A DNA stretch of 64,000 nucleotides from an uncultured Lachnospiraceae bacterium (GTDB taxonomy: Bacteria > Bacillota > Clostridia > Lachnospirales > Lachnospiraceae), in the NCBI GenBank assembly GCA_902780385.1, contig CACZFF010000019.1, positions 27,211 to 91,210 of the forward strand, read 5' to 3'. The notes beneath the pieces are model-generated. The model worked only from the letters and a program-made list of their open reading frames with translations, was not told the origin of the DNA and searched no databases. Positions 9,620 to 63,977 of the stretch are shown here, in pieces (position 1 is the first letter of the stretch; each line of letters opens with the position of its first letter). Both the position numbers and the translations under genes were made by a program.

Positions 9620-9728
9620 TCGATCTCAGCCCCCGGCCTGCCCCGGGTCAGAGCCGGTTTCCCGCCAAACTGCCTTTCAATGCGCTCTGATGGTATTATA
9701 AAAATGTGACTTCAGCATGGGGAAATGC

Positions 9729-10637: not shown

Positions 10638-10700
10638 TGCTGCCTGCCAAAATAACAGAGCCATACCGATCAAAAACGGTGTGATACATTGAGACTTTAC

Positions 10701-10727
10701 AGCGGTCCCGAAAGGGGCCGCTTTTTT
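10701..10727 (+). terminator. Rho-independent terminator after rsgA
   Basis: A perfect 8-bp stem GCGGTCCC/GGGGCCGC with a GAAA tetraloop is followed by six T residues. It closes the housekeeping run that ends with rsgA. Confidence 0.9.
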
Positions 10728-10740
10728 CTGCAGCAAAACC

Positions 10741-10856
10741 CTGCCGACGCATGCTGTGCATGTGCCGGTTTGCAAATACCGAAACATTTCCTGACTCACG
10801 CACAGTCGCTGCATCCTGCCGGCGCATGCTGTGCCTGTGCCCCTGTGCCGGCTTGC
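10741..10856 (+). repeat. Imperfect direct repeat between rsgA and the FNT gene
   Basis: 10741-10773 and 10816-10856 share CTGCCGRCGCATGCTGTG followed by TGTGCCGG and TTGC blocks; the second copy has an 8-base internal duplication. No gene is visible between 10638 and 11003; the gap holds the terminator, this repeat and the promoter of the next gene. Confidence 0.6.
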
Positions 10857-10948
10857 ACAGCAGACAATCCGGCTGGACATTGTCTGAGAGGCAATGCATT
10901 ATTGAATTGAAAAAATAATAAAAAACCTGCGCTTCCTGTACTTCCTTC

Positions 10949-10977
10949 TTGCCATGATGTCAGGGAGGCGTTAGAAT
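10949..10977 (+). promoter_or_regulatory. Sigma-A-type promoter of the FNT channel gene
   Basis: TTGCCA (10949-10954), a 17-bp spacer and TAGAAT (10972-10977) stand 27 bases before the start codon, with AGGAGG at 10987-10992. Confidence 0.65.
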
Positions 10978-11003
10978 AGTTCATTCAGGAGGTTTGATGA
11001 ATT

Positions 11004-11618
11004 ATGAATTATTTAAAAACATTTCTTTTCGGCATTCTGGCAGGAATATCGATCTCGATCGGCGGGACTGTATTCCTGTCCCTGGACAACAAGGTGCTTG
11101 GAGCCGTCTTTTTTACCGTCGGCCTTTTCACTGTATGCACCTTCGGATTTGATCTTTTCACAGGTAAGGTATGTTACGTATTCGACCGGGACCTTCCTTA
11201 TGCCCTGGGTGTGGTCGTCATGTGGCTGGGCAACTTCGCGGGCGCCTGGCTGACCGCTTTTGCGGAGAGCCTGACCAGGATCGGCCCCGCCCTTCAGGAG
11301 AAGGCGGCTGCCATGTGCGCCGTGAAATCCGGCGATACATTCCTGAGCCTTTTCATACTGGGAATATTCTGTGATATCCTGATCTATATCGGTGTAGACG
11401 GCTACAACAAGAACCCTCATGAAGTGGGCAAATATCTGTCACTCCTCTTCGGTGTGACGGTATTTATCCTGTGCGGGACAGAGCACTGCGTCGCGGATAT
11501 GTACTATTTTTCGATCGCGGGTATGTGGAATCCGCACACACTGCTGTGTCTGCTTGTGATCTCGCTGGGAAATGCTTTTGGCGGAGTCCTGCTGCCCCTG
11601 GTGCGCAGACTGAGATAG
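11004..11618 (+). CDS. Formate/nitrite transporter family channel
   Basis: This integral membrane protein has about six hydrophobic segments. The FNT-family signatures are GAVFFTVGLFTV...FTGKV in the first half and EHCVADMYYF in the second, matching the EHSVANM segment that carries the pore histidine in FocA. At 204 residues it is clearly shorter than FocA or NirC (about 260-285), mainly through short loops and N terminus. Likely substrates are small monovalent anions such as formate, nitrite or hydrosulfide; which one cannot be told. It has its own promoter and stands alone. Confidence 0.85.
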   Translation: MNYLKTFLFGILAGISISIGGTVFLSLDNKVLGAVFFTVGLFTVCTFGFDLFTGKVCYVFDRDLPYALGVVVMWLGNFAGAWLTAFAESLTRIGPALQEKAAAMCAVKSGDTFLSLFILGIFCDILIYIGVDGYNKNPHEVGKYLSLLFGVTVFILCGTEHCVADMYYFSIAGMWNPHTLLCLLVISLGNAFGGVLLPLVRRLR

Positions 11619-51677: not shown

Positions 51678-51785
51678 GTGCTCCGACACAAACATCCGGA
51701 GTGAAAAATATCGTATCAACGATATTTTTCACTCTTCTGACCAGGGAAAGGAGTTTAAGACTTTTTTTGGAGGATATAAGTAAAT

Positions 51786-51878
51786 ATGAAATTAGGCATT
51801 GTAACTTCATCAATAATAACATATAATTTAATAAATATATACAAAAGCATATATAACAGCATAAAAACTCGTTTTTAG
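51786..51878 (+). CDS. Possible 30-residue AT-rich small protein
   Basis: A short frame begins at an ATG 12 bases after a good GGAGG site (51769-51773). It encodes 30 residues, rich in Ile, Asn, Ser and Tyr, beginning MKLGIVTSSIITYN, moderately hydrophobic with a basic C terminus. Codon and base use differ sharply from the host region. It could be a real small membrane-active peptide, the tail of a lost gene, or chance. From 51879 to 52216 I see only AT-rich DNA, a TGGGTCAATT direct repeat near 51946-51966 and a terminator. Confidence 0.3.
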   Translation: MKLGIVTSSIITYNLINIYKSIYNSIKTRF

Positions 51879-52142: not shown

Positions 52143-52172
52143 AGGTTATAAGCCTGCAAATTCTCCCATATG
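52143..52172 (+). promoter_or_regulatory. Block promoter P1
   Basis: AGGTTA (52143-52148), 18 bp, CATATG (52167-52172), with TTCTCC immediately before the -10. It conforms to the cassette seen across the right-hand block, with the weakest -35. It precedes the RelA/SpoT-like gene. Confidence 0.55.
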
Positions 52173-52216
52173 AAAGCTGAGAAACATATTATCCGCCTAA
52201 CACAAAAGGAGGGGAA

Positions 52217-53293
52217 ATGCAAAGCACATCAGCAACCATGGCGATGGTAGACTATAAGACGCAAGAGTGGGAAAAATATTCGTATGGAGAAATGGAGGAA
52301 TACAGCAGGCTCCGGTTCACAGAACCTCTTGTGACCGCTGATGTCAAGGCGGTTACAGAAAATCTTGGGACAAGCCTTGAAGGCTTGGAGTATGCCGTGA
52401 AAACAGCTTCCAGTGTGGAAGACAAGCTGGACCGGAAACGAGAAGACTGGGATATAGAGAGGCCTTTTACGCCGGCAAAAGAAATCCGGCAGATGCCGGA
52501 TGTTATCCGGTATACGGAGCTCTGCCGGCATCAGGACATTATTCCCGTCACAAAGAAGACAGTCGAAGAAATGCAGAAGAAGGGATATGTCCTCTCGGGG
52601 CTTACCAATTTCTATGCCCGCCCGTTTAAGAGGACCGGCTACATGGGCATGCATCTCCGCTTTATCTCTCCTGGCGGAAGCCCGGTTGAACTGCAGGTAC
52701 ATTCTCCGGAAAGCTTTGCCGCAAAGCAGGAAGGACATGCGTTGTATGAAAAGATACGTTCGGTCAGCACGCCTGAAGCAGAAAAAGAAAGGCTGTCTGT
52801 CTTGATCCGTGAAGTACACGGGAGAGTTGAGCGTCCGGAGGGGTATAAAGACCTGAAATCGTTCGCAATGCAGCCCCGGGAAGTAAAGAAACTCATGGAA
52901 GAAAGAAAACATGAGGTGGATGTTGACATCCAGACAAAAAGAGACTTTCCAGGCGTTATGGTGTATACTGTATCCGTAAAAGCCGAGCCGGTTCTTCATG
53001 GGTGCGAAATGCACTTTTCAGACGACAGCCTGTGGTCATACAAAAATGACCTGCAGAAAGGCAAAGCTGCCCTGCATGTCATTGGCCATGACGGGAAAGA
53101 AATTGCAGGGTATGACTCCAAGCAGAAAACATTTACTGTTTCCCATGCAGTAAAGATGCGGGAGGATCAGGAAGTCAGCCATGCATCATGGATGGAAGAA
53201 CATTTCCCGAACGGATATTCCCTGGATGAAGCGATGGAGACGGAATTAGAAAAAAATGTTGCCTATCTCCCGAAGGGCCCTGACGCAAGGTAA
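52217..53293 (+). CDS. RelA/SpoT-like nucleotidyltransferase-fold protein
   Basis: The 358-residue protein has a middle region (about residues 85-195) that looks like a divergent RelA/SpoT synthetase fold: MPDVIRYTELC, a G-Y element, RTGYMGMHLRF (compare the GYRSLH substrate loop) and VELQVHSPESFAAKQEGHALYEKIR (compare the EIQIRT strand). The canonical synthetase Arg/Lys-rich and Asp motifs are not clearly preserved. The C-terminal 150 residues are unrecognised. AAAGGAGGGG precedes the ATG. The next gene encodes an HD hydrolase of the SpoT type, so the two may act as an opposing pair. Confidence 0.6.
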   Translation: MQSTSATMAMVDYKTQEWEKYSYGEMEEYSRLRFTEPLVTADVKAVTENLGTSLEGLEYAVKTASSVEDKLDRKREDWDIERPFTPAKEIRQMPDVIRYTELCRHQDIIPVTKKTVEEMQKKGYVLSGLTNFYARPFKRTGYMGMHLRFISPGGSPVELQVHSPESFAAKQEGHALYEKIRSVSTPEAEKERLSVLIREVHGRVERPEGYKDLKSFAMQPREVKKLMEERKHEVDVDIQTKRDFPGVMVYTVSVKAEPVLHGCEMHFSDDSLWSYKNDLQKGKAALHVIGHDGKEIAGYDSKQKTFTVSHAVKMREDQEVSHASWMEEHFPNGYSLDEAMETELEKNVAYLPKGPDAR

Positions 53294-53333
53294 CATATGT
53301 TTTTTGTTATAAACATTGAATGCGCAGCGTTTT

Positions 53334-53363
53334 TTGTTATAAACGCTGCGCATATTCAATATG
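53334..53363 (+). promoter_or_regulatory. Block promoter P2 fused to terminator hairpin
   Basis: TTGTTA (53334-53339) lies in the loop of the ATGCGCAGCGTTT hairpin and its T-run; after 18 bp comes AATATG (53358-53363). The leader contains GCTGAAAAGAATGGAG and then AAAGGAG before ATG 53406. Confidence 0.6.
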
Positions 53364-53405
53364 CTTTTTAGTTAGCTGAAAAGAATGGAGAAAGGAGAAA
53401 AAAAT

Positions 53406-54311
53406 ATGGACATGATGGAAGAAAAGAAGAAACAGCTGCTTGCGGAAGCGATCTCCCTGGCAGCAAAGGCCCACTGCGGGCAGGCAAGGCGTGATGAGAC
53501 GCCATATATCTACCACCCTCTGATGGTGGCAGAGATCGTGAAAAGGAATGGCGCATCCATTGACTGCCAGATTGCAGCCATCCTGCACGACACCCTGGAA
53601 GACACTTCTGTAACAGAAGATGATATTGCCAAATTCGGGGGAAATGTCGTACGGGCAGTCAAGTTGCTCACACGGGAAAAGGGCATGGATGAAGCGGATT
53701 ATGTCGGTGCAATCCTTCAGGATCCGATCGCGAAAGCCGTGAAGGAGGCGGATAAGATCCATAACCTCCGTGAGGCTGTCCTGTGCGGCGACAACGGGTT
53801 CCGTAAATGGTATGCCAAGAAGGCGAAAAAATACTATTACGGAAAATTCTCTCCATCTCTCGATGCTGTGATCGATCTGGCGTTGGAAGGGAAGGTAGAG
53901 AAAACGATCACCGATGCAGTCATCAAGGTCCCGAAAGACACAGGTATTATCCCTGCCATGCCTGTTCCTAAAGGCGGCATCATCCCGGCGTGGCTTGTCC
54001 CCGAAGAAATGCACAAGCCTGGCAAGAACCGGCGCACAAAGGAATTTGACGCCCGTGATCCGGAAAACGCGTTCTATATGGACACGAGGTATGATGACTC
54101 CTATATCTGTGACCCGGACAGCGAATCCGGCGCAGTTGGCGAAACACAGGTGTATGCCCTGACCAGAAATGGGTGGAAGGCAGAACACCGGGACATGGTG
54201 GTCGACTTCGATATGTATATCGAACAGACCCGGGAGGAAATGGATACCATTATTTCGGAACTCCACGAGCGTGGCTGGTTCCATGATGGCGTCGATGTAG
54301 AAAAACTGTGA
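53406..54311 (+). CDS. HD-domain hydrolase of the SpoT/MESH type
   Basis: The N-terminal half has the metal-dependent HD signature of (p)ppGpp hydrolases: AAKAHCGQARRDETPYIYHPL in outline at residues 17-38 (first His), ILHDTLEDT (HD and ED) near residue 62 and KEADKIHNLREA near residue 112. The C-terminal 170 residues are not part of that domain and are unrecognised. ATG 53406 follows AAAGGAG; an earlier in-frame ATG at 53385 belongs to the conserved ATGGAG leader. It is separately promoted but directly follows the RelA-like gene. Confidence 0.8.
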   Translation: MDMMEEKKKQLLAEAISLAAKAHCGQARRDETPYIYHPLMVAEIVKRNGASIDCQIAAILHDTLEDTSVTEDDIAKFGGNVVRAVKLLTREKGMDEADYVGAILQDPIAKAVKEADKIHNLREAVLCGDNGFRKWYAKKAKKYYYGKFSPSLDAVIDLALEGKVEKTITDAVIKVPKDTGIIPAMPVPKGGIIPAWLVPEEMHKPGKNRRTKEFDARDPENAFYMDTRYDDSYICDPDSESGAVGETQVYALTRNGWKAEHRDMVVDFDMYIEQTREEMDTIISELHERGWFHDGVDVEKL

Positions 54312-54344
54312 AAAGGGCCGTGGCGATGACGCCGCGGTTTTTTG

Positions 54345-54386
54345 TTGGCTTTTTGCGGTGAATATAATTGACCGCAAAAAGCCAAA
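54345..54386 (+). terminator. Hairpin after the HD gene
   Basis: TTGGCTTTTTGCGGT and ACCGCAAAAAGCCAA form a perfect 15-bp stem (54345-54359/54372-54386). A smaller GC-rich hairpin with a T-run (about 54317-54343) comes just before it and is the more likely terminator. This interval does not fit the block promoter cassette. Confidence 0.6.
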
Positions 54387-54441
54387 GTGGTAGCATATGT
54401 GTTAGTTGTTCTGTGTTAGTTGTGCTGATAGGGATGAACAG

Positions 54442-54939
54442 ATGGGTAAATACGAAAACAAGAGGCCAGGCAAAGAATATATACAGATGATATGCGGACT
54501 TTATGGCGACATATACGATGACCGGAATGAAGACAGCCGTTTTGGGGGAAAGGACTGGGTACCGGGCAGAAAAGCGAAACACCTCTCCTTGTCTGCCTTC
54601 CAGAAGGAGCTGAAGGATAAAGGAATCTATCTAAGCACAGCCAAGATCAGAAAGATCCTGATCTCCGGCGGATGCTGGTCGACGGAACAATCCCGGGAAG
54701 CCGCAAGACTATACAGGCAATACGGCAGCGTTACAAAAGTTGCCGAAAAGATGGATGTGAGTGCTCCGATGGCAACAATGTACCTGCCGTATGAAAAAGG
54801 AGTCTACGACCTGGAAGAAAAGAGCAGCGACGCAAAAAGAATGGAACGATACAGGTCATATGCCAAAAATGTCCCTAATAATGGTGAGGATAAGGGACAT
54901 GACCAACCACAAAGGGGATACGATGGAAAACGGAAATAA
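54442..54939 (+). CDS. Putative helix-turn-helix protein of mobile elements
   Basis: The 165-residue basic protein has a region around residues 80-135 (YRQYGSVTKVAEKMDVSAPMATMYLPYEKGVYDL) that reads like a helix-turn-helix followed by the LPYEK.VYDLEEKSSDAKR segment I associate with regulators encoded on Firmicutes mobile elements. The N-terminal 60 residues are unknown. ATG 54442 is chosen over TTG at 54406. It overlaps the SymE-like gene by 17 bases in another frame, suggesting coupling. Confidence 0.55.
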   Translation: MGKYENKRPGKEYIQMICGLYGDIYDDRNEDSRFGGKDWVPGRKAKHLSLSAFQKELKDKGIYLSTAKIRKILISGGCWSTEQSREAARLYRQYGSVTKVAEKMDVSAPMATMYLPYEKGVYDLEEKSSDAKRMERYRSYAKNVPNNGEDKGHDQPQRGYDGKRK

Positions 54940-55138
54940 AAACGGGGAAAAGCATAGGAATCATATCTGTACCGTCGGGAAGCTCGGCGGCAATTCTTAT
55001 ATCAGGCTGAGAGGAAAATGGCTTGAAGAGGCAGGTTTCAATACCGGTGATCGCTTCAACGTCGAAGTGCAAGGAGAGAGGCTGGTCTTAAAGAGGATAG
55101 AAAAGCAGGAAACAGGCGGGGAAATCCCCCTGCGGTAA
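54923..55138 (+). CDS. SymE-like (SpoVT/AbrB-fold) small protein
   Basis: This 71-residue protein contains the SymE core SYIRLRGKWLEEAGFNTGDRFNVEVQ and the strand ERLVLKRI. SymE of E. coli is an SOS-induced toxin with an AbrB-like fold controlled by antisense RNA. The start could be ATG 54923 (AAAGGGG 6 bases upstream) or 54899. It overlaps the upstream helix-turn-helix gene. Whether it is a toxin here is not shown. Confidence 0.7.
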   Translation: MENGNKNGEKHRNHICTVGKLGGNSYIRLRGKWLEEAGFNTGDRFNVEVQGERLVLKRIEKQETGGEIPLR

Positions 55139-55192
55139 AACAGGAAATTCGTTCCTAAAACCAAAATACTGACAGCATGTATGTTCCGGTTT

Positions 55193-55222
55193 TTCTTATG
55201 CTCCTGGTTATTATTCCATATG
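55193..55222 (+). promoter_or_regulatory. Block promoter P3
   Basis: TTCTTA (55193-55198), 18 bp, CATATG (55217-55222). The leader has AAAAAATGGAG and then AAGGAGG before ATG 55276. Confidence 0.65.
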
Positions 55223-55275
55223 CGGGGTAGACACTCGAAAAAATGGAGAAATAACAAACAAGGAGGAACAAGTCA

Positions 55276-56097
55276 ATGAAAGAAAAACTGTTAATGGAAC
55301 ACCTTTGCAGTCACCATGGGGCGGTCGCAAAAAACGAGATGCTCCGCAAGATGGTGGAAGGAATCGTTAAATATTCCGAAAACCAGGCAAAAGATAACGA
55401 GACATTAAGGGCTATGCTGAAAGCACTTCTGGAACCGCTCAAAATCAATAACCATGTTCTGAATTTCGGCCGTGTTGTCCTTAATGACGAGAAGAAGGCC
55501 GTCATTGCGAACATTTCAATGGAAATGCTCAAAAAAGGGCTTGGTGATACTGATGAGAACGGAAAGCTCATGAACACCGGTGCAATCCGGTTCGAAACAA
55601 ACCAGCAGGCAGAAGGAACCGTCGCCAAGATCGGCGATTACTGGTTCTATTTCAGTGACCCGGTTGCGGCGGAAGACACTCCAGATAAATACATTGCCGC
55701 TGTGCCCATCGGCACAATGATAAGGGAGCTCTCCGAAGCTCTGGAGGAGCTGGCAGAGGATGGTAATGTAGCAGAATATATGTACTATTACTATGCGCTC
55801 AGGGAAGCCGCAGGGAACATCCCGGTTTTCCATGAGACAGCTCCCGTGGAAGAAGAGCTCAAAAAGCTGTCAGTGAAAACCCCAAAAGGAGTCATGACGG
55901 CAGAAGCGAAGGGTACTTACGATGAATACCCGGGATTTTTCATCGCCATGGAGTCCGGGTACGACGAATGTGACCCGCTTATGGCAACAGTGGAATACGA
56001 CACAGCCAATGGCCGTCTACAGATCGCGGGGTATCGGAAAGGGTCTGATGACCTGAATACACTGACTGATTATGACACAGGAGAAGACCTTCTGTAA
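55276..56097 (+). CDS. Unknown protein of the mobile block
   Basis: The 273-residue acidic protein has a helical N terminus (residues 1-60), a middle region with the Trp/Tyr-rich strand GDYWFYFSDPVAAEDTP, and a C-terminal beta-rich part ending DYDTGEDLL. No signal peptide, membrane segment or catalytic motif is visible. I do not recognise it. AAGGAGG precedes the ATG. It shares its transcription unit with the small gene at 56113. Confidence 0.8.
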   Translation: MKEKLLMEHLCSHHGAVAKNEMLRKMVEGIVKYSENQAKDNETLRAMLKALLEPLKINNHVLNFGRVVLNDEKKAVIANISMEMLKKGLGDTDENGKLMNTGAIRFETNQQAEGTVAKIGDYWFYFSDPVAAEDTPDKYIAAVPIGTMIRELSEALEELAEDGNVAEYMYYYYALREAAGNIPVFHETAPVEEELKKLSVKTPKGVMTAEAKGTYDEYPGFFIAMESGYDECDPLMATVEYDTANGRLQIAGYRKGSDDLNTLTDYDTGEDLL

Positions 56098-56112
56098 GGG
56101 AAAGGAAAAGAT

Positions 56113-56271
56113 ATGGATGAAAAAGCGGTAAAAGAAATGATCCAGGATGAAACAGAAGTGCTTAAAAGAGTGATCCAGTATCTCGCCAACTTCGTGCAGT
56201 ATCCAAACGGCAAAAATGAACGGGAGGCCATCGACCGTATCTGCGATGGAGATTTCTCTGATTTCGAATAA
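56113..56271 (+). CDS. 52-residue acidic protein
   Basis: A short frame 15 bases after the preceding gene encodes 52 residues beginning MDEKAVKEMIQDETEVLKRV and ending GDFSDFE. AAAGGAAAAG precedes the ATG. It is acidic and probably helical, with codon use like its neighbours; function unknown. A terminator follows. Confidence 0.6.
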   Translation: MDEKAVKEMIQDETEVLKRVIQYLANFVQYPNGKNEREAIDRICDGDFSDFE

Positions 56272-56295
56272 AGTGTGGATAATGAGCTAATACCA

Positions 56296-56335
56296 AAAGA
56301 CCGCTGCTCTTAACAGACGGCGGTCTTCTTTTTTG
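56296..56335 (+). terminator. Terminator merging into block promoter P4
   Basis: AAGACCGC and GCGGTCTT arms are followed by a T-run that overlaps the next -35 region. Confidence 0.85.
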
Positions 56336-56363
56336 GCTATGATGCCTACCTTTCTGCAATATA
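56334..56363 (+). promoter_or_regulatory. Block promoter P4
   Basis: TGGCTA (56334-56339), 18 bp, AATATA (56358-56363) preceded by TTCTGC. The leader has ACCTATGGAG and then AAAGGAAA before ATG 56414. Confidence 0.6.
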
Positions 56364-56413
56364 TAAAGCATGTTCCCAGAGACCTATGGAGCTTACATAC
56401 AGAAAGGAAAATC

Positions 56414-57070
56414 ATGAAAAAAACAAAAAAAGGCACAAACACACCAAACATGTCCGTCTATTACGACATCTGCCGTGAAAGAAGCCCGTTCAAATGGGCC
56501 CGGCGGTATTTCCGCCAGAGAAAATGGGCGCGCCAGAGGGCGGTGAGAGGATACGCTGATTGTGATGTCTTGGATATCAGAGGGTGGTTCCTCGGAGTCC
56601 TGCCTGCCATGCTGGATCAGATGGCAGAAGAAGCGCACGGATATCCTGTATTCCCGTGCAGGCTCTATCTGACGGAAGCTGCAGAGCAGAATGCTGACCT
56701 ATCTTCCAGAGAAGAGGAAACAGAAATTAATTTCGAGGAGTGGCAGGCTTTGCTGCGTCACATGGCACAGAAATTCCGTGACGCAGATGAAGACATGTGC
56801 TCCATGAAAAATCCCTATGAAGACGAATGGACGAAGGCTTACGATGAGTTCACAAAAACATACGGGACATTCGGTGACAGGTTGGAAAAGGAAGCGTTCC
56901 ATCGCAAGGATCCGTCCATCCGGATGCATTTCCCAGACGAGTTTCCACAGTGGAAGGGCATTATGGACAAGCACAGAGAAAAAGAAACAGAGATTGCAAA
57001 ATTCAGGCAGAAGAGCCTGGATGAAGCAATGGAGCTTTTCCATAAATGGTTCTGGAACCTGTGGGACTAA
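56414..57070 (+). CDS. Phage-type protein of unknown function
   Basis: The 218-residue protein contains a basic segment (FKWARRYFRQRKWARQR) and RGYADCDVLDIRGWFLGVLPAMLDQM, a pattern I associate with uncharacterised phage and prophage proteins. The C-terminal half is charged and helical and ends KWFWNLWD. No catalytic motif is visible. ATG 56414 follows AAAGGAAA; the open frame to 56333 crosses the promoter. It forms an operon with the gene 12 bases downstream. Confidence 0.7.
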   Translation: MKKTKKGTNTPNMSVYYDICRERSPFKWARRYFRQRKWARQRAVRGYADCDVLDIRGWFLGVLPAMLDQMAEEAHGYPVFPCRLYLTEAAEQNADLSSREEETEINFEEWQALLRHMAQKFRDADEDMCSMKNPYEDEWTKAYDEFTKTYGTFGDRLEKEAFHRKDPSIRMHFPDEFPQWKGIMDKHREKETEIAKFRQKSLDEAMELFHKWFWNLWD

Positions 57071-57082
57071 AAAGGAGGTCTT

Positions 57083-57799
57083 ATGAAAATTTTGAAAAAC
57101 AAAGTCCGGGATGGAAACTGCTTCCTGTATTCTTTCGACCTGGATCAGTGCTACCATCCCAAAAGCTATCCTGCAGGGTTCCTTATTTTGTATACCATTG
57201 CCAGGTGTGACAGCATCCCCGTAGACGGTATCCTGTTCGACCGTTGGGGGGACATCCATGACGGCGGCGTGAGGGAAACCTACAGCCGAGGATTATTTAC
57301 AAAGAAGTTCCCTTCCTTCGAGAAATTCTGCAGCAGGATAAACGACACGGATGCGGGGCCGTGGCAGGTAAAGCTGGATGACGGCACTTCCATCAGCGGA
57401 GAAACGGATTCTGTTGTCACGGTTTTCGCGGAAAATGATACAGTGCATTTTGCCAGGCTTTTTGCCGGGATAGAAGATGACACGTATGCATTCCACGAAT
57501 ATCCGGAATCGCTGGTCCAATACCTTCAGAAAAAAGAGAAGATAACGCTGAGAAGTTCTGTGCAGATATTGGAACATATTTCATCCAGACCTGATATCTA
57601 CCGGGAATTTTGCCATTGCGTTCAGTCTGGAGAATATGTGGCTGCGGATATCCCGGTGAAGGTCGAAGGGTATACGGCCTGGCAGCTTGTTTCGGAAGCC
57701 GGGCTCCATCCGGTTGGTGCATACAGCACCCTGGTAGACCTAGCAAGTGACCCTCAGAGAACAAACGAGCTGGTCAAGAACGGATTTGTTCGAAAATAA
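57083..57799 (+). CDS. Unknown protein of the mobile block
   Basis: The 238-residue soluble protein shows a beta-rich N-terminal half (GNCFLYSFDLDQCYHP, GILFDRWGDIHDGG) and a helical C-terminal half. There is no signal peptide or recognisable motif. AAGGAGG precedes the ATG, 12 bases after the upstream stop, so the two genes are co-transcribed. Function not assignable. Confidence 0.75.
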   Translation: MKILKNKVRDGNCFLYSFDLDQCYHPKSYPAGFLILYTIARCDSIPVDGILFDRWGDIHDGGVRETYSRGLFTKKFPSFEKFCSRINDTDAGPWQVKLDDGTSISGETDSVVTVFAENDTVHFARLFAGIEDDTYAFHEYPESLVQYLQKKEKITLRSSVQILEHISSRPDIYREFCHCVQSGEYVAADIPVKVEGYTAWQLVSEAGLHPVGAYSTLVDLASDPQRTNELVKNGFVRK

Positions 57800-57806
57800 T
57801 GACAGA

Positions 57807-57837
57807 AAAGGCATCGGAGCAAATCCGGTGCTTTTTG
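57807..57837 (+). terminator. Terminator upstream of block promoter P5
   Basis: AAAGGCATCGGA and CCGGTGCTTTTT arms (one G-T pair) with a short loop, ending in T residues. The same arms, nearly unchanged, recur in the terminator at 63922. Confidence 0.8.
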
Positions 57838-57845
57838 TTTTACTT

Positions 57846-57875
57846 TTGTTATAGGAAGGCTCTTTCGCCCATATA
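57846..57875 (+). promoter_or_regulatory. Block promoter P5
   Basis: TTGTTA (57846-57851), 18 bp, CATATA (57870-57875) preceded by TTCGCC. The leader has CATGAGCACTATATGGAG and then AAAGGAG before ATG 57924. Confidence 0.7.
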
Positions 57876-57923
57876 CACAATACAGAACATGAGCACTATA
57901 TGGAGCAGAAAGGAGATCAGAAA

Positions 57924-58142
57924 ATGGCAAATGAGAGAAAGTGGTTCGATGTCGACAACATCATCGACAACAAGAAACGCCGCAAGAAGATCGATGCAGC
58001 GAACGGTTTTATCGAAAAGCTTGCAGTTATCCGCCGGTTTGTGGTCGCAGAAGCCGCTGCGCAGAAGGTTCATCTGACAGATGACGAGATCACATGGTAT
58101 GCCCACAAAATCTACAGACAGATGTCTTCGGTATACGCATGA
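57924..58142 (+). CDS. Small basic helical protein
   Basis: The 72-residue protein has a Lys/Arg-rich stretch (DNKKRRKKIDAANGF) and a helical C-terminal half ending MSSVYA. It might bind nucleic acid, but no fold is recognised. AAAGGAG precedes ATG 57924. It is the first gene of a unit with the ATP-grasp-like gene. Confidence 0.65.
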   Translation: MANERKWFDVDNIIDNKKRRKKIDAANGFIEKLAVIRRFVVAEAAAQKVHLTDDEITWYAHKIYRQMSSVYA

Positions 58143-58200
58143 AAACAAATAAGAAAAAGCACCGTTCCGGCGATACTTCATTTTTAAGGAGGAAATGATT

Positions 58201-59634
58201 ATGCTTAATCTGAAAGCTTTATTCAGCAAAAAGGCTGACCTTGTTCTGAAAGACCAGATCGCCGAACTGCTGAAAGTAAGCCCGGAAAGACTGGAAGAAT
58301 TCGAAAAAGCATACCAGACAGCCGTACTTTCAGACGGCGCTGATCCTGATGATTTTTTCGGCACCAGTTCTAAACAAACGTCTCAAAGCCTTCGGGAATC
58401 ATTCGTGCTTCCAGAAAAATTTAATGAAGAGGCGCTCGTGTCCATGATCAACACGATCACGGATGGCCTCTGTGAAAAAACTCCGCGGTTGGAAGTAAAG
58501 AACGGCATGCCGTCATCCATGCCGCTTCTGACTGGAAGCTCATCCAATCCGCAAATGACAAAGGAGATGATCCGGGCCCTGCCTGAAGCGATACGGCCTC
58601 AGTTGACGGACAGCCTGATGATGCACCAACTGGACAACCGGGAGAAAAGTACGTCAGACATGCTCTTCCTTTGGCTTTTGCGGTTAAGGGATGAGAAAGA
58701 CCCAAAAAAAAGACGTGTCTATTACCACCAGTTTCGTCAGGGGCTTGATATCCTTGACCTGGATGAGCTCACATATCGGATGCTCGGAATGAACCGAAAC
58801 AGTATGAGCTACTGGCTCCCTGCCATTTCCCAGGCGGCAGCAAAGCATGGTTTTTTTCGCATCCCGGAGACAAAGATAGCAAAAGTCCCGTTGCCGCTCC
58901 TACAGCTGTCCCGGCTCGATTATGGTTCACTTACGCCAACCACCCTGAAAATCGTGGACGACTGGGCAATGAGAACATTCGACCTGGACGTCAACAAGAC
59001 CTACTTCATCAAGACTGGCACCTATTCTTCGAAGTTCGATTTTAGGAACGCAAAGGTGACCGGCGAAAAAGAAGTCCGTGAACTTGGCGAATACCTGTTG
59101 TTTATCCAGAACCAGGCAGTAGAAATGGCCGGCCCTCTCACGCAGCCTTCCATCTACGGAGTCAGCACCACCAACGAGTGGGTCGTCAGGGAGTTCATTG
59201 AAGATGTAGAGAACAATCCATGCATCTATAAAGGATTGCCTCTCCATACTGAATACCGTATCTTCGTCGATTTTGACACAGACGAGATCCTTGGTATTTC
59301 TCCCTACTGGGAGCCGGAGACTATGAAGCGGAGATTTGGCGAAGGAAATGATGCGTCCTCGCCCCACCAGAGACACGACTATATCATCTATAAGATGCAT
59401 GAAGACGTGCTCATGGGAAGGTATCACGAAAACAAAGAGAAGGTTCTCAAGGCCGTGCAGGATTTACTCCCCGATGTCGACCTGGAAGGGCAATGGTCCA
59501 TCGACATCATGCAGAATGGAGACGATTTCTGGCTGATCGATATGGCAACCGCTGACACGTCCGCATTGAATGAATGCATTCCTGCAGGGAAGCTGAAGAA
59601 AAGCCCGGAGAACTGGATACCGGAACTCAACTAA
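58201..59634 (+). CDS. ATP-grasp-like protein (R2K-type candidate)
   Basis: The first 250 residues are unrecognised. The C-terminal 200 have the layout of an ATP-grasp ligase: KTYFIKTGTYSSKFDF (nucleotide-binding Lys), a WVVREFIE strand (Arg/Glu), HTEYRIFVDFDTDEILGISPYW and the final metal-binding strand GDDFWLIDMATADTS. This resembles phage-encoded ATP-grasp proteins that add groups to nucleic acids or peptides. ATG 58201 is 8 bases after AAGGAGG; ATG 58195 is too close. The target is unknown. Confidence 0.5.
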   Translation: MLNLKALFSKKADLVLKDQIAELLKVSPERLEEFEKAYQTAVLSDGADPDDFFGTSSKQTSQSLRESFVLPEKFNEEALVSMINTITDGLCEKTPRLEVKNGMPSSMPLLTGSSSNPQMTKEMIRALPEAIRPQLTDSLMMHQLDNREKSTSDMLFLWLLRLRDEKDPKKRRVYYHQFRQGLDILDLDELTYRMLGMNRNSMSYWLPAISQAAAKHGFFRIPETKIAKVPLPLLQLSRLDYGSLTPTTLKIVDDWAMRTFDLDVNKTYFIKTGTYSSKFDFRNAKVTGEKEVRELGEYLLFIQNQAVEMAGPLTQPSIYGVSTTNEWVVREFIEDVENNPCIYKGLPLHTEYRIFVDFDTDEILGISPYWEPETMKRRFGEGNDASSPHQRHDYIIYKMHEDVLMGRYHENKEKVLKAVQDLLPDVDLEGQWSIDIMQNGDDFWLIDMATADTSALNECIPAGKLKKSPENWIPELN

Positions 59635-59720
59635 GGAAAGAATATTTCGCCGTTCGGCTTTATTTGTTCTTTTTTATAACGCATTCCGCCGTACGGCTAA
59701 TTCCAAAAATATTTGCATAA

Positions 59721-59757
59721 AGAAGACCGTCCGCCCATGTGGCTCGCGGTCTTCTTT
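59721..59757 (+). terminator. Terminator merging into block promoter P6
   Basis: AGAAGACCG and CGGTCTTCT pair, followed by T residues that form the start of the next -35. The preceding stretch 59635-59720 holds imperfect GCCGT(T/A)CGGC repeats and no gene. Confidence 0.85.
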
Positions 59758-59786
59758 TGTTATAAAGACATTTATTCGCACATATT
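59757..59786 (+). promoter_or_regulatory. Block promoter P6
   Basis: TTGTTA (59757-59762), 18 bp, CATATT (59781-59786) preceded by TTCGCA. The leader has ACTGAACATTCATGGAG and then AAAGGAG before ATG 59837. Confidence 0.7.
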
Positions 59787-59836
59787 TCAGGAAGAAACTG
59801 TTACTGAACATTCATGGAGAAGAAAGGAGAAAAGAA

Positions 59837-60319
59837 ATGAATGCCTACAAATACACCATGCAACTTGACGAAGACCGTCTTCCTATGCTTGTAAAAGAAA
59901 AGGCATATTACAGGGTGGACCGCAGGTGTTGCTTTGATGACGCCCAGAAGATATGGGAGCTTTCCCAGACGATTGGCCTCGATAAGATGGCTGAAGAATA
60001 CATGTACTGTGTCTGTATGGATACGAAATTACGGGTGATCGGACTGTTCGAGGTTTCACACGGCACAGTATTCTATTCTCTCGCATCACCAAGGGAAATA
60101 TTCCAGAAGGCCCTGATGCTTGGGGCAGTATACATCACCCTGATCCACAACCATCCGAGCGGAGACCCGGCTCCTTCTCCTGAAGACATTGGCCTTACAA
60201 GGTCTGTTTTCGATGCAGGAGAAGTCCTTGGTATCACGCTCATAGATCATGTTGTGGTTGGCTACAACTGCTACTGTTCGCTCAGAAGTGAGGGACGGGA
60301 GCCGTTTACAAAGAGATAA
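59837..60319 (+). CDS. RadC-type JAB/MPN-domain protein
   Basis: The 160-residue protein has a complete JAMM zinc motif: His104-x-His106, Ser114 and Asp117 in HNHPSGDPAPSPEDIGLT. Unlike long RadC it lacks the N-terminal helix-hairpin-helix half, a form common on plasmids, phages and ICEs. RadC-like proteins of mobile DNA are thought to be anti-restriction or repair factors; biochemistry is unsettled. AAAGGAG precedes the ATG, and rtcB follows after 18 bases. Confidence 0.88.
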   Translation: MNAYKYTMQLDEDRLPMLVKEKAYYRVDRRCCFDDAQKIWELSQTIGLDKMAEEYMYCVCMDTKLRVIGLFEVSHGTVFYSLASPREIFQKALMLGAVYITLIHNHPSGDPAPSPEDIGLTRSVFDAGEVLGITLIDHVVVGYNCYCSLRSEGREPFTKR

Positions 60320-60337
60320 AGGAAAAGGAGAAGAACA

Positions 60338-61534
60338 ATGTTTGAACTTAAGGGAAAATATGGAACTGCAAAAGTATTCACTGACCTGGCAGATGATAAA
60401 AGCATCTCGCAGGTTATGGGTCTTTTGAACCAGCCGTTCTCGGAAGGGCAGAAGATCAGGCTGATGCCCGACATCCATGCCGGTGCCGGGTGTACGATCG
60501 GGACAACGATGACGGTCACTGACCGTATCTGCCCGAACCTGGTCGGCGTCGACATCGGATGTGGGATGCATGCGGTCAAGATTGAAGAGCGTGACGTGGA
60601 TTTTGCCAGCCTGGATGCCGTGATTCGGGAGTATATCCCAAGCGGTTTCGATATCCGGGAATCCGCACACAAAAATGCGTCCGGCATAAACCTTCAGGAG
60701 CTTTTCTGTGCAGAGGCATGTGACCTCGACAGAGCCGAAAAATCTGTCGGCACACTGGGAGGAGGAAACCATTTCATCGAAATCGACAAAGCGTCGGACG
60801 GGAGTCTCTGGCTCGTGATCCATTCCGGTTCCCGAAACCTTGGAAAACAGGTGGCAACATTCTACCAGGATGAAGCCATCAAGAGCCTCCACGGAGTCGA
60901 CCGCGACCTGATCAACAAAACGATTGCCGACCTGAAGGAGCAGGGGCGCCAGAAAGACATCCAGAAATCCATTGCTGCCCTGCAGCCTGTTCATAAGGAT
61001 GTCCCGGATGCCATTTGCTGGTGTGAAGGCGAACTGTTTGAGAAGTATGTCCATGACATGAAGCTCACACAGAAATTCGCTGATATCAACCGCAGGACGA
61101 TGGCAGAAGTCATCCTCGATAAAATGGAACTCCATGCTGTGGATTCGTTCACTACGATCCACAATTATCTCGATACAGAAAATATGGTCCTGCGCAAGGG
61201 TGCAGTTTCCGCAGCAAAAGGAGAACGTCTTCTGATCCCCATGAACATGCGCGACGGGTCCCTCATCTGTATCGGGAAAGGGAATCCAGACTGGAACTGC
61301 TCGGCTCCACACGGTGCCGGCAGGCTCATGAGCCGCGGACAGGCAAAAGAAGCCATCTCGATGGAAGATTTTGCGGAATCTATGGAGGGTATCTGGACAT
61401 CTTCAGTGTCTGAAACGACCATCGACGAAAGTCCTATGGCGTACAAGCCAATGGAAGCGATCATTGAAAATATCGGGGATACAGTCGAGATTATCGACAG
61501 GATAATCCCTGTATATAATTTCAAGGCCGGATGA
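60338..61534 (+). CDS. rtcB: RNA-splicing ligase RtcB
   Basis: RtcB joins RNA 2',3'-cyclic phosphate or 3'-phosphate ends to 5'-OH ends using GTP and Mn2+. Metal-site and catalytic features are visible: VGVDIGCGMH (Asp72, Cys75), TLGGGNHFIEI, HSGSRNLGK and SAPHGAGR, whose His accepts GMP. The 398-residue length is that of a compact bacterial RtcB. No archease gene is nearby. In a mobile element it could repair tRNAs cut by host anticodon nucleases. GGAAAAGGAG precedes the ATG; it follows the RadC-type gene in one operon. Confidence 0.93.
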   Translation: MFELKGKYGTAKVFTDLADDKSISQVMGLLNQPFSEGQKIRLMPDIHAGAGCTIGTTMTVTDRICPNLVGVDIGCGMHAVKIEERDVDFASLDAVIREYIPSGFDIRESAHKNASGINLQELFCAEACDLDRAEKSVGTLGGGNHFIEIDKASDGSLWLVIHSGSRNLGKQVATFYQDEAIKSLHGVDRDLINKTIADLKEQGRQKDIQKSIAALQPVHKDVPDAICWCEGELFEKYVHDMKLTQKFADINRRTMAEVILDKMELHAVDSFTTIHNYLDTENMVLRKGAVSAAKGERLLIPMNMRDGSLICIGKGNPDWNCSAPHGAGRLMSRGQAKEAISMEDFAESMEGIWTSSVSETTIDESPMAYKPMEAIIENIGDTVEIIDRIIPVYNFKAG

Positions 61535-61558
61535 AAAGAAGGAAAATGCAAAAAACTC

Positions 61559-61589
61559 AGCACCTGTGTATCTGCAGGTGCTGTTTTTT
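61559..61589 (+). terminator. Terminator merging into block promoter P7
   Basis: AGCACCTG and CAGGTGCT pair around an 8-base loop, followed by six T residues that overlap the next -35. Confidence 0.88.
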
Positions 61590-61617
61590 GTTGTATCCTT
61601 CCCTATTGTCCCATATG
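61588..61617 (+). promoter_or_regulatory. Block promoter P7
   Basis: TTGTTG (61588-61593), 18 bp, CATATG (61612-61617) preceded by TTGTCC. The leader has CCTGAAAACAATATGGAG and then AAAGGAG before ATG 61668. Confidence 0.7.
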
Positions 61618-61667
61618 TATTCCACAAGAACCTGAAAACAATATGGAGACAAAGAAAGGAGCATAAA

Positions 61668-62066
61668 ATGATCAATAATCACAAAATAGGAGAGTGGAGA
61701 GAAGAGGTGCGTTACGCGCTCATGTTCTATGTCGATCGTTACGGAGGTTATGCTTTCCCGTGCGACAAGGATGGGAACGTGCTTATGGACCAGATGGAAG
61801 AGCCGGCAAGAAAGAACTATGCAGATTGCCTGGCCCATCCGGAGAAGTACCCGTACGGGTTCAATGAAGTCCACAAGGACGTAAACAGATACCGCGAGCC
61901 GGATACCGGCACCTGCCGCTGCGGACAGGAAATGTCCCTGACCAATGAATATATGGGCGCGTGCCAGTGCCCGAAATGCGGCCAGTGGTACAGCATTTCC
62001 GGGCAGGAGCTCCTTCCCCCGAGTGAATGGGGATGGGACGGGACGCCGATCGATGACGATTACTGA
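61668..62066 (+). CDS. Zinc-ribbon protein of mobile elements
   Basis: The 132-residue protein contains a four-cysteine ribbon (CRCG...CQCPKCG) followed by QWYSISGQELLPPSEW. This ribbon plus the G-Q-E-L-PP tail is a pattern I recall from small proteins on Firmicutes conjugative elements; function unknown. ATG 61668 follows AAAGGAG. It heads a four-gene unit that ends with the Dam-like methylase. Confidence 0.75.
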   Translation: MINNHKIGEWREEVRYALMFYVDRYGGYAFPCDKDGNVLMDQMEEPARKNYADCLAHPEKYPYGFNEVHKDVNRYREPDTGTCRCGQEMSLTNEYMGACQCPKCGQWYSISGQELLPPSEWGWDGTPIDDDY

Positions 62067-62080
62067 AAGGATGCATAAGA

Positions 62081-62419
62081 ATGAAATACTATTATATCCC
62101 ATACAAACAAGGTACAGAACTGGAACCATTTGACTCTTTTTATAACGCACCTAAGCGTGCCGGAGAATTTCTTCGCTTTGAGGATTATCCAACACACCGG
62201 CATGAGTCATACGGATATGTTCATATCATGGAACTCATCCCGGAGAAACGGATGATGTCTGTCAAGTACCTGCGTTCACATATCGGCAGGTTCTCTATAT
62301 TAGAGACAGACAGGAAAAACGTGTTCCGGGAAGCCGGCTCCTATTGGTTGGCAGAGTTCGAGAAGGCTCACGACACAGAGATATATAAACAACACAAAAG
62401 GAAGGAGAAAAGATCATGA
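62081..62419 (+). CDS. Unknown small protein
   Basis: The 112-residue basic protein begins MKYYYIPYKQGTELEPF and has no recognisable domain, signal or membrane segment. Spacing (14 bases from the upstream stop) and the 4-base overlap with the next start indicate an operon. Confidence 0.7.
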   Translation: MKYYYIPYKQGTELEPFDSFYNAPKRAGEFLRFEDYPTHRHESYGYVHIMELIPEKRMMSVKYLRSHIGRFSILETDRKNVFREAGSYWLAEFEKAHDTEIYKQHKRKEKRS

Positions 62420-62958
62420 GCAAAGACAGTGGGCGTATAGTCCGTATCCGGCGCGCTTATAACATGAAAAGCCACCCTATTCAGGAATATGACGTGACCT
62501 GCCCTGCATCTGACCTCGTATTCATCTCGGGCTTGATACTGCGGTATATATCCATTTTGGACGGGTACAGGAAAGATATTCAGTACCTGGCATATTACCG
62601 TAACAAGTTTTTGTCTATTTCGGAGAAATTGGCAGGGGCAAATAACTTTAGCACAGATGAAATCCCATGCGCATATGGAAGCCTTGTGCTGGTTATCTGT
62701 ATGCTTCGAGATGAAAATATCTGGGCCGAGACGGAATATGCCGGCAGCAGCAACTTCCGCAGGATCGCGGAAAATCTGTCTCTTCAGATCGGCTATGACT
62801 ATGACACGGCAATTGAAAAATGCCGCAAAAAGGCTGAAAAGGAAGATGCCGACAATGATGTCGGTGATGAAGCAATGTCCCTGATGGTAAAAAAAGCCAA
62901 AAGAGAGGCTGAATACCAGAAGAAAAAGAAAGAAGAGAAAGAAAGGGCAAAAAAGTGA
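62416..62958 (+). CDS. Unknown protein with charged C-terminal tail
   Basis: The 180-residue protein has a mixed N-terminal region and a long Lys/Glu-rich helical tail (about residues 155-180) probably forming a coiled coil. It overlaps its neighbours by 4 bases on both sides (ATGA and GTGA), a sign of tight translational coupling. AAGGAG precedes the ATG. No family is recognised. Confidence 0.7.
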   Translation: MSKDSGRIVRIRRAYNMKSHPIQEYDVTCPASDLVFISGLILRYISILDGYRKDIQYLAYYRNKFLSISEKLAGANNFSTDEIPCAYGSLVLVICMLRDENIWAETEYAGSSNFRRIAENLSLQIGYDYDTAIEKCRKKAEKEDADNDVGDEAMSLMVKKAKREAEYQKKKKEEKERAKK

Positions 62959-63911
62959 AAACAGAAGAGTGCTGCCGCTGGTGCGGGAGCACAGAAAAAG
63001 ATGATATTGCCAAAGACGGTAGCGGCTTCTGGTGCGCGGATTGTGATGGGTTCACCTATTACGATAACGAAAAAAACAAAAGGCACCGGATGCTGCTTGT
63101 CCTTGAGTCTGAAAAGGGCATCTACCCGGATATGGAAAGGAGGCATAAGCTGAAAAAGCAGATCTCGCCTCTCCGTTATCCCGGCGGGAAGTCGAAAATC
63201 GCACACTGGCTACTTATGCAGACGCAGCCGTGGCAGATGGACAGTTTTGTCGAGGTATTTGCAGGCGGGGCCTCTGTCGGGCTAAGCCTTCTTGATGCCG
63301 GGCGTATCAAAAAGCTTCTATTGAATGATGCGGACCCAAACGTATACGCTTTTTGGAAGGCAGTGCTGTACGCGCCGGGCAGCCTTATCCGGAAGATTGA
63401 AGAAACTGTCCCGGACAGGGAGGCTTTCTTTTCAGCGAAGGAACGCTTGAGGGAAGACATTACGGATCAGGAACGGGCATGGTGCTTTTTCCTTATTAAC
63501 CGGACAGCTTTTTCCGGGATCCAGATGGCAAATCCCATGAAGGATATTGCATCCAGATGGAACCCGATGAATCTTACGAAAAGGATAAAGCGGATCGCAT
63601 CCATGAAAGACAGAATTTCCCTGTACAACATGGACGCCTGCGACTTCCTGGAACAGTATGCGTACTGGACAGAAAACACGACATTATTCATTGATCCGCC
63701 ATATTACGGGCAGGGAAAGAGGTTGTATCCACACGCTTACGACATCGATGGCCATGAGAACTTTGCGGATATGGTCAATTCTCTCTATACCGGTTTTGGA
63801 GGCCCGGACATTATCATTACATATGATGACTGCCGGGAGATTGAAAACCTGTATCCCTGGGCGGATATCCAGAGGATCGGCAGGAACTATTCCTGCAGGA
63901 AGAGCAAATAA
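62955..63911 (+). CDS. Zinc ribbon fused to Dam-type adenine methyltransferase
   Basis: Residues 1-35 form a CxxC...CxxC zinc ribbon (Cys7, Cys10, Cys27, Cys30). From about residue 68 the protein is a D12-class N6-adenine methyltransferase: ISPLRYPGGKSK (SAM site), SFVEVFAGGASVGL, LNDADPNVYAFW and the catalytic FIDPPYYG. No restriction endonuclease gene is nearby, so it is likely an orphan methylase protecting element DNA. The GTG start at 62955 overlaps the upstream stop. An internal ATG at 63132 near an AAGGAGG could give the methylase alone. Confidence 0.88.
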   Translation: MKTEECCRWCGSTEKDDIAKDGSGFWCADCDGFTYYDNEKNKRHRMLLVLESEKGIYPDMERRHKLKKQISPLRYPGGKSKIAHWLLMQTQPWQMDSFVEVFAGGASVGLSLLDAGRIKKLLLNDADPNVYAFWKAVLYAPGSLIRKIEETVPDREAFFSAKERLREDITDQERAWCFFLINRTAFSGIQMANPMKDIASRWNPMNLTKRIKRIASMKDRISLYNMDACDFLEQYAYWTENTTLFIDPPYYGQGKRLYPHAYDIDGHENFADMVNSLYTGFGGPDIIITYDDCREIENLYPWADIQRIGRNYSCRKSK

Positions 63912-63921
63912 TATTCAAAAG

Positions 63922-63949
63922 AAAGGCACCGGGAATCCGGTGCTTTTTT
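63922..63949 (+). terminator. Terminator merging into block promoter P8
   Basis: AAAGGCACCGG and CCGGTGCTTT arms with a short loop and a six-T run that runs into the next -35. Confidence 0.88.
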
Positions 63950-63977
63950 GTTATGTCTATCATTTTTCTCCTATATA
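63948..63977 (+). promoter_or_regulatory. Block promoter P8, downstream gene outside window
   Basis: TTGTTA (63948-63953), 18 bp, TATATA (63972-63977) preceded by TTCTCC. The leader starts ACTGAAACATA at the window edge, so another gene of the block should follow within about 40 bases. Confidence 0.7.

What the first reader, a model, noticed from the sequence alone, without database searches (positions are those of the whole stretch)
52143..63977. A uniform terminator-promoter-leader cassette drives almost every operon of the mobile block
Eight intergenic gaps carry the same layout: a -35 close to TTGTTA (at 52143, 53334, 55193, 56334, 57846, 59757, 61588, 63948), exactly 18 bp, then YATATR or AATATR. 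The -10 is directly preceded by a TTCTCC-like pyrimidine stretch instead of a TG. In five cases the -35 lies in or at the end of the T-run of the preceding terminator, and in a sixth in a hairpin loop. Six of the seven gaps with a visible gene start also have ATGGAG (usually after CTGAAAAC-like sequence) and then AAGGAG or AAAGGA before the start codon. Constant spacing over 12 kb points to one dedicated regulator or sigma factor, or at least a highly economical transcription design.
Basis: partly seen in the sequence, partly recalled or inferred. Interest (0 to 1): 0.85.

Follow-up and report, generated by a model that had tools for sequence, protein, structure and literature searches.

The report
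Private promoters of an integrated element
A piece of mobile DNA in a bacterial chromosome starts most of its visible operons from one repeated, non-standard promoter that was not found elsewhere in the host sequence examined, which suggests that the element has its own way of steering the host's RNA polymerase.

Summary
The eight sites are real and beyond chance. A 36-bp sequence model run over the host's 3.3 Mb gave these eight, two more, and one half-site at E 6. The two more lie on contig C32, which carries the other end of the same element: a 19-bp repeat of the ychF 5' end marks both junctions and a tyrosine integrase sits beside one. Both carry the ATGGAG...AAGGAG leader, which was not in the model. 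Leave-one-out, all ten sites outscore 862 kb of other host sequence. Aligned on the -10, +1 is A in 9/10 and G in 1; -1 is a pyrimidine in 9/10; -7 is T in only 1/10, unlike sigma-A promoters. So these look like true promoters of a non-sigma-A specificity. No sigma gene lies on the 25.6 kb of element assembled, and its middle is missing, so the factor is inferred. The one cassette-free gap has a sigma-A-like promoter and precedes a putative HTH protein. No other genome searched carries the cassette. Closest precedent: plasmid sigma factor SigN, with another consensus. New variant of a known kind.

The parts
51784..51802 (+). attL: 19-bp repeat of the first bases of ychF (with bases just before its ATG); the other copy is at C32:38169-38187, minus strand
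   Evidence: ychF identified by YchF-GTPase_C
52143..52172 (+). promoter 1: AGGTTA-18-CATATG; predicted start 52179 (G); leader without ATGGAG
53334..53363 (+). promoter 2: TTGTTA-18-AATATG; -35 in a hairpin loop; predicted start 53370; ATGGAG at 53385
55193..55222 (+). promoter 3: TTCTTA-18-CATATG; predicted start 55229; ATGGAG at 55243
56334..56363 (+). promoter 4: TGGCTA-18-AATATA, abutting a terminator T-run; predicted start 56370; ATGGAG at 56386
57846..57875 (+). promoter 5: TTGTTA-18-CATATA, just after a terminator; predicted start 57882; ATGGAG at 57900
59757..59786 (+). promoter 6: TTGTTA-18-CATATT, in a terminator T-run; predicted start 59793; ATGGAG at 59814
61588..61617 (+). promoter 7: TTGTTG-18-CATATG, in a terminator T-run; predicted start 61624; ATGGAG at 61643
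63948..63977 (+). promoter 8: TTGTTA-18-TATATA, in a terminator T-run; predicted start 63984; leader cut by the contig end
54345..54396 (+). the gap without a cassette: 19-bp inverted repeat (54345-54385, 95% complementary) and a sigma-A-like promoter TTGACC-17-TAGCAT with TG before the -10 (54368-54396)
54442..54939 (+). 165-aa protein, putative HTH; no Pfam hit of its own; some relatives match GerE and sigma-70 region 4 HTH models in the corresponding part; candidate regulator
54923..55138 (+). 71-aa SymE_toxin-family (AbrB-like) protein in the same transcription unit
   Evidence: unit inferred from the sequence
59837..60319 (+). RadC-like JAB-domain gene, an example of the cargo
60338..61534 (+). 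RtcB RNA ligase gene, an example of the cargo
62955..63911 (+). D12-class adenine methyltransferase gene, an example of the cargo

Best explanation
The block is one end of an element integrated by a tyrosine recombinase into the 5' end of ychF. Most of its operons here, and two on the other assembled piece (C32), start from one private promoter: -35 TTGTTAT, a 17-18 bp spacer ending in TTCTCC, -10 YATATR, start at A seven bases after the -10. Host RNA polymerase is directed to it by a factor private to the element, most likely an alternative sigma factor or a sigma-appropriating protein, encoded in the unassembled middle or by a gene too divergent to recognise. Terminators abutting many of the promoters would make each operon depend on its own promoter. 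First genes share a short leader with ATGGAG at +15 to +22 and a second GGAG at the ribosome site. Shown: uniqueness in the host sequence examined, geometry, start-site signature, att repeat, two out-of-sample sites. Inferred: existence and nature of the private factor, insulation, any role of ATGGAG. The putative HTH protein 54442-54939, behind the only sigma-A-like gap promoter of the block, is the best visible candidate for the factor or its switch.
For: Whole-genome model: 8 sites + 2 on C32 and nothing else at E<=0.1. Both C32 sites have the leader that the model did not contain, and C32 carries the other end of the element. Leave-one-out scores 22.4-35.3 against host maxima of 18.4-19.9 in 862,069 bases. 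+1 is A in 9 of 10 and G in 1, -1 pyrimidine in 9 of 10 (about 0.002 and 0.001 against local composition). -7 is A4 G4 C1 T1, and the sigma-70 scan lists none of the eight sites. Conservation sits in the boxes, the spacer middle is 0.08-0.64 bit per column. Only four Sigma70_r2 genes in the genome.
Against: No sigma or RNA-polymerase-binding gene recognised on the 25.6 kb of element. No transcription data. No second element with the cassette, so there is no covariation with a factor. A relaxed core pattern with one mismatch allowed gives 51 matches in the genome, 7 of them on the element, so 44 elsewhere against 32 for the reversed control: a small excess that I did not follow. The genome is 92% complete.
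Confidence: 0.58

Rival explanations
1. Host sigma-A uses the promoters with help of an element-encoded activator (for instance the putative HTH protein or the SymE/AbrB-like protein) that binds TTGTTAT or the TTCTCC stretch and makes up for the poor -10.
For: A putative HTH gene stands behind the one sigma-A-like gap promoter. In a related locus (C. porci, L009) five copies of another module, ATTTTTTCATATCCGCA, lie upstream of what look like sigma-A promoters, so an operator plus sigma-A design is plausible in this kind of element.
Against: -35 and -10 boxes are both at holoenzyme spacing with a +1 signal, and the -10 lacks T at -7 in 9 of 10 sites. An activator alone does not explain a shared non-sigma-A -10.
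Confidence: 0.27
2. A host alternative sigma factor reads the promoters, for example a sporulation-type one with CATA -10 boxes or one of the ECF factors.
For: CATA-type -10 boxes are known for sporulation sigma factors (recalled). The genome has a SigH-like and two ECF-type factors.
Against: No sporulation sigma among four Sigma70_r2 genes, and no such promoters in 862 kb of host sequence or at E<=0.1 in the genome by the core model.
Confidence: 0.08
3. The cassettes are alike because promoter-leader modules were copied together with cargo genes, without a dedicated factor.
For: Terminator-promoter-leader-gene units look modular.
Against: The spacer middle is near random while the box positions are fixed, which recent copying does not give.
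Confidence: 0.05

Closest known systems
SigN (ZpdN) regulon of Bacillus subtilis plasmid pBS32 (PMC6751061: passages, and one section)
   Same: Many near-identical promoters confined to a mobile element; in that paper 17 mapped and 2 predicted, and no SigN promoters found in the chromosome
   Different: The SigN consensus (TTTACG with GATATAA) is not this one; SigN was shown by experiment, here no factor is known; pBS32 is a plasmid, this element is integrated
Phage-encoded sigma factors and their promoters in Bacillota (PMC9429907, passages; the SPO1 late consensus is recalled only)
   Same: Element-specific promoters read by redirected host RNA polymerase
   Different: None of the element proteins scanned was identified as a virion protein except a weak PHROG 'head morphogenesis' resemblance of 52217-53293; no phage sigma gene found
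Elements that encode a homologue of the 58195-59634 protein: Clostridium porci, Oscillospiraceae, Anaerofilum and Clostridiaceae contigs, Bifidobacterium megaplasmids such as pMP7017
   Same: That protein at 49-55% identity in four genome contigs and about 46% in three Bifidobacterium plasmids; the C. porci and Anaerofilum loci also have repeated intergenic modules
   Different: Their modules have other sequences; the core model finds no site in these loci, the pMP7017 stretch included; with the eight-site matrix the C. porci locus has one 18.5-bit match without the leader

Membership tests
element-private alternative-sigma regulon (SigN type) | set of like promoters confined to the element | tested here: met
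   10 sites on two pieces of one element, none at E<=0.1 elsewhere by the core model and none in 862 kb by the matrix
element-private alternative-sigma regulon (SigN type) | promoter geometry and +1 signal of a sigma-70-family holoenzyme, but not the sigma-A -10 | tested here: met
   from sequence only; starts not mapped
element-private alternative-sigma regulon (SigN type) | sigma gene on the element | tested here: inconclusive
   none recognised on the 25.6 kb held; the middle is missing and divergent factors can escape the models
element-private alternative-sigma regulon (SigN type) | the SigN consensus itself | tested here: not met
   consensus compared with Table 2 of PMC6751061
sigma-A promoters | T at -7 of the -10 box and a TTGACA-like -35 | tested here: not met
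   T at -7 in 1 of 10; none of the eight in the sigma-70 scan
sporulation sigma regulon | a sporulation sigma factor in the host | tested here: not met
   four Sigma70_r2 genes, none judged sporulation type; genome 92% complete
integrative element with tyrosine recombinase | integrase gene and flanking direct repeat at a host gene | tested here: met
integrative conjugative or mobilizable element | relaxase or secretion genes | tested here: inconclusive
   none among the element proteins scanned with Pfam; the middle is missing

The most novel reading that the evidence does not exclude
The element encodes an unrecognised promoter-specificity factor (a divergent sigma or sigma-appropriating protein, possibly of the HTH family at 54442-54939, some relatives of which match sigma-70 region 4 models) that reads TTGTTAT-N17/18-TTCTCCYATATR. 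Cargo-rich elements of this kind would then each carry a private transcription code coupled to a private mRNA leader.
Probability: 0.3. Interest if true: 0.75.

Novelty: new variant of a known kind. Interest (0 to 1): 0.55.

Why it matters
If true, an integrated element controls its cargo (RtcB, RadC-like, HD-domain and methyltransferase genes, a PARP-like protein and others) as one block through a promoter code that the host does not use. That would give an orthogonal expression system and a handle for finding unknown sigma-like factors in mobile elements.

Tried and rejected
Leader peptide for ATGGAG: rejected by eye, since its frame relative to the gene varies. RNA structure in the leader: none beyond chance in 5 of 5 folded, out of 9 complete leaders. 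TTGTTATA read as an extended -10: dropped, its last two bases are not conserved.

Relatives of the 58195-59634 protein: one viral contig, four genome contigs, one other of 299 family genomes; the core model finds no cassette in them. Isolated matches to the eight-site matrix in other fetched loci: 18.5 bits in L009, 20.5 bits in L099, without the leader in the stretch printed. Viral contigs for proteins 55276, 52217, two C32 proteins and 54442: none. Pattern with leader in 299 genomes: 2 matches in the own genome, 15 in 14 others, 4 control matches; at these places the eight-site matrix gives at most 13.7 bits outside the own genome. Pattern in viral contigs: 27 stretches, one match each; the best, 23.2 bits in L046, lies inside an open frame of 769 codons, the others I judged chance without testing each. 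Core model in 397 genomes: besides the own, 26 of 396 have a match at E<=0.1 (chance would give about 40), and 0 of these 27 loci has both ATGGAG and AAGGAG nearby; filters were strict, 17 candidates scored per genome. Leader pattern in the own genome: 16 matches, 7 in the element, 4 for the control. Repeat at the C32 end to explain the contig break: no second copy. Sigma gene on an orphan contig: C84 holds an ECF gene beside thioredoxin-system genes, so host. Literature listings showed nothing that describes this promoter set; only open PMC papers are held.

Full report
Observation. Four of eight -35 boxes are exactly TTGTTA, eight of eight spacers are 18 bp, seven of eight -10 boxes fit YATATR/AATATR (59757 is CATATT), six of seven complete leaders hold ATGGAG. 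Leave-one-out matrices put seven of eight sites above every other position in the window on both strands; 53334 is equalled or beaten at two places. No dinucleotide shuffle of 200 reaches the weakest site, the sites being scored with their own matrix.

Genome-wide test. The window is G000:C19:27211-91210, and C19 ends at the window's end, so the element is cut there. A sequence-only model of the 36-bp core over the 3.3-Mb genome returned the eight sites (E 2e-4 to 3e-3), two hits on contig C32 (E 0.02 and 0.09) and a half-site at window 53300 (E 6); 521 candidates came from the first look and 150 were scored. The C32 sites read TTGTTA-17-CATATC and TTGTTA-18-TATACA, and both are followed by ATGGAG and AAGGAG before a gene, although the model held no leader. 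This is an out-of-sample confirmation.

Same element. C32 holds a tyrosine integrase (Phage_integrase) next to ychF (YchF-GTPase_C). A 19-bp repeat, the start of ychF, occurs once in the window (51784-51802) and once on C32 (38169-38187). Both ends also have a pair of TGGGTCAA repeats 11 bases apart, possible integrase arm sites. The element thus has 12.2 kb on C19, 13.4 kb on C32 and an unknown middle. The contig ends do not overlap.

Privacy. A two-box matrix (-35 region; TTCTCC plus -10; -1/+1), allowing 17 or 18 bp, was tested by leave-one-out against 862,069 bases of host stretches, about a quarter of the genome. Held-out sites score 22.4-35.3, host maxima are 18.4-19.9, and no host position reaches a held-out score. 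The best non-element places lack ATGGAG. Against this, a relaxed pattern with one mismatch gave 44 matches off the element and 32 for its reversed control.

Promoter anatomy. Anchored on the -10, +1 is A in nine and G in one of ten, and -1 is a pyrimidine in nine, where a sigma-70-family holoenzyme would start. Against local composition this has chances of about 0.002 and 0.001. The other columns after the -10, to +24, stay at or below 0.84 bit, against 1.53 at +1. Positions -11, -10, -9 are invariant A, T, A; -8 is T in nine; -7 is A4 G4 C1 T1. Sigma-70 holoenzymes bind A-11 and T-7 (passage of PMC7598289). The sigma-70 scan of the block lists none of the eight. The spacer's middle has 0.08-0.64 bit per column.

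Who reads it. The genome has four Sigma70_r2 genes: one in a 392-aa frame that I take for RpoD, a SigH-like one, and two ECF-type ones (the types partly by eye). None lies on the element pieces. A divergent element sigma, or one in the missing middle, is the simplest reading; an activator of sigma-A is the main rival. On C19, eight of nine gaps over 80 bp carry the cassette (my count). The ninth, 54312-54441, has TTGACC-17-TAGCAT with a TG and a 19-bp inverted repeat, before a 165-aa protein without a Pfam hit. Relatives occur in 11 of 200 family genomes, the own one included. Of four relatives scanned, two match GerE and sigma-70 region 4 HTH models in the corresponding part, one matches only a resolvase HTH model weakly, one nothing. 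On C32 the gaps before the Mrr-like nuclease, sortase and integrase genes show no cassette.

Leader. ATGGAG starts at +15 to +22 in eight of nine complete leaders; its density in the element predicts about 0.007 per leader. Of eight gene starts inside operons one has ATGGAG within 60 bases upstream, in the preceding gene. Five of five leaders folded show no structure beyond chance. Its role is untested.

Generality. In 397 family genomes the core model gave 26 others with a match at E<=0.1, fewer than chance predicts, none with the leader (strict filters). In viral contigs the leader pattern gave 27 single matches; the best lies inside a long open frame. Related loci lack the cassette by the core model but two have other repeated intergenic modules: five copies of ATTTTTTCATATCCGCA in C. 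porci (L009), and a terminator-like module in Anaerofilum (L011). A private cassette per element may therefore be a theme; two loci do not establish it.

Known kinds. SigN of pBS32 is the nearest functional parallel: 17 mapped and 2 predicted promoters on the plasmid, no SigN promoters found in the chromosome, another consensus (PMC6751061). Phage sigma regulons are the other parallel (passages of PMC9429907). I call this a new variant of a known kind, with the factor still to be found.

Noticed in passing
L009 (C. porci) 6776, 8907, 11577, 17787, 20595: Five copies of another intergenic module, ATTTTTTCATATCCGCA, just upstream of what look like sigma-A promoters, in a locus with a related protein.
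   Followed up: partly
L009 6445-6728, 9860-9948, 11547-11577, 17972-18275: Twelve copies of a 31-nt repeat with a CCCCGC...GCGGGG stem, several about 60 bases apart, like a CRISPR-type or other repeat array.
   Followed up: no
L011 (Anaerofilum) 2111, 5741, 9238, 11414: A repeated intergenic module with a TATAAT-like box and a long hairpin.
   Followed up: no
C32 (L114) 8733-10304, minus strand: PARP catalytic-domain protein on the element, with a 28%-identical relative on a Butyrivibrio megaplasmid.
   Followed up: partly
C32 (L114) 10564-11559, minus strand: RRXRR plus HNH protein at the contig end, which by recall resembles IscB-type nucleases.
   Followed up: no
window 58195-59634: Protein without Pfam family, related to proteins on Bifidobacterium, Lactococcus, Alkaliphilus and Virgibacillus plasmids and to phrog_12834.
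   Followed up: partly
window 52217-53293: Partial weak resemblance, far below the model's cut-off, to the C-terminal part of large XopAD/PRK09169-type proteins and to a PHROG called head morphogenesis.
   Followed up: no
window 53299-53345: Two identical 16-nt copies of GTTTTTTGTTATAAAC 30 bases apart; only the second is followed by a -10 box.
   Followed up: no
ends of own-genome contigs L185, L204, L209, L217, L240, L242: The same TCATTTGTGGTATAGTGGGACATTATCAAAAATGATTTATA sequence near six contig ends, probably an insertion-sequence end that breaks the assembly.
   Followed up: no
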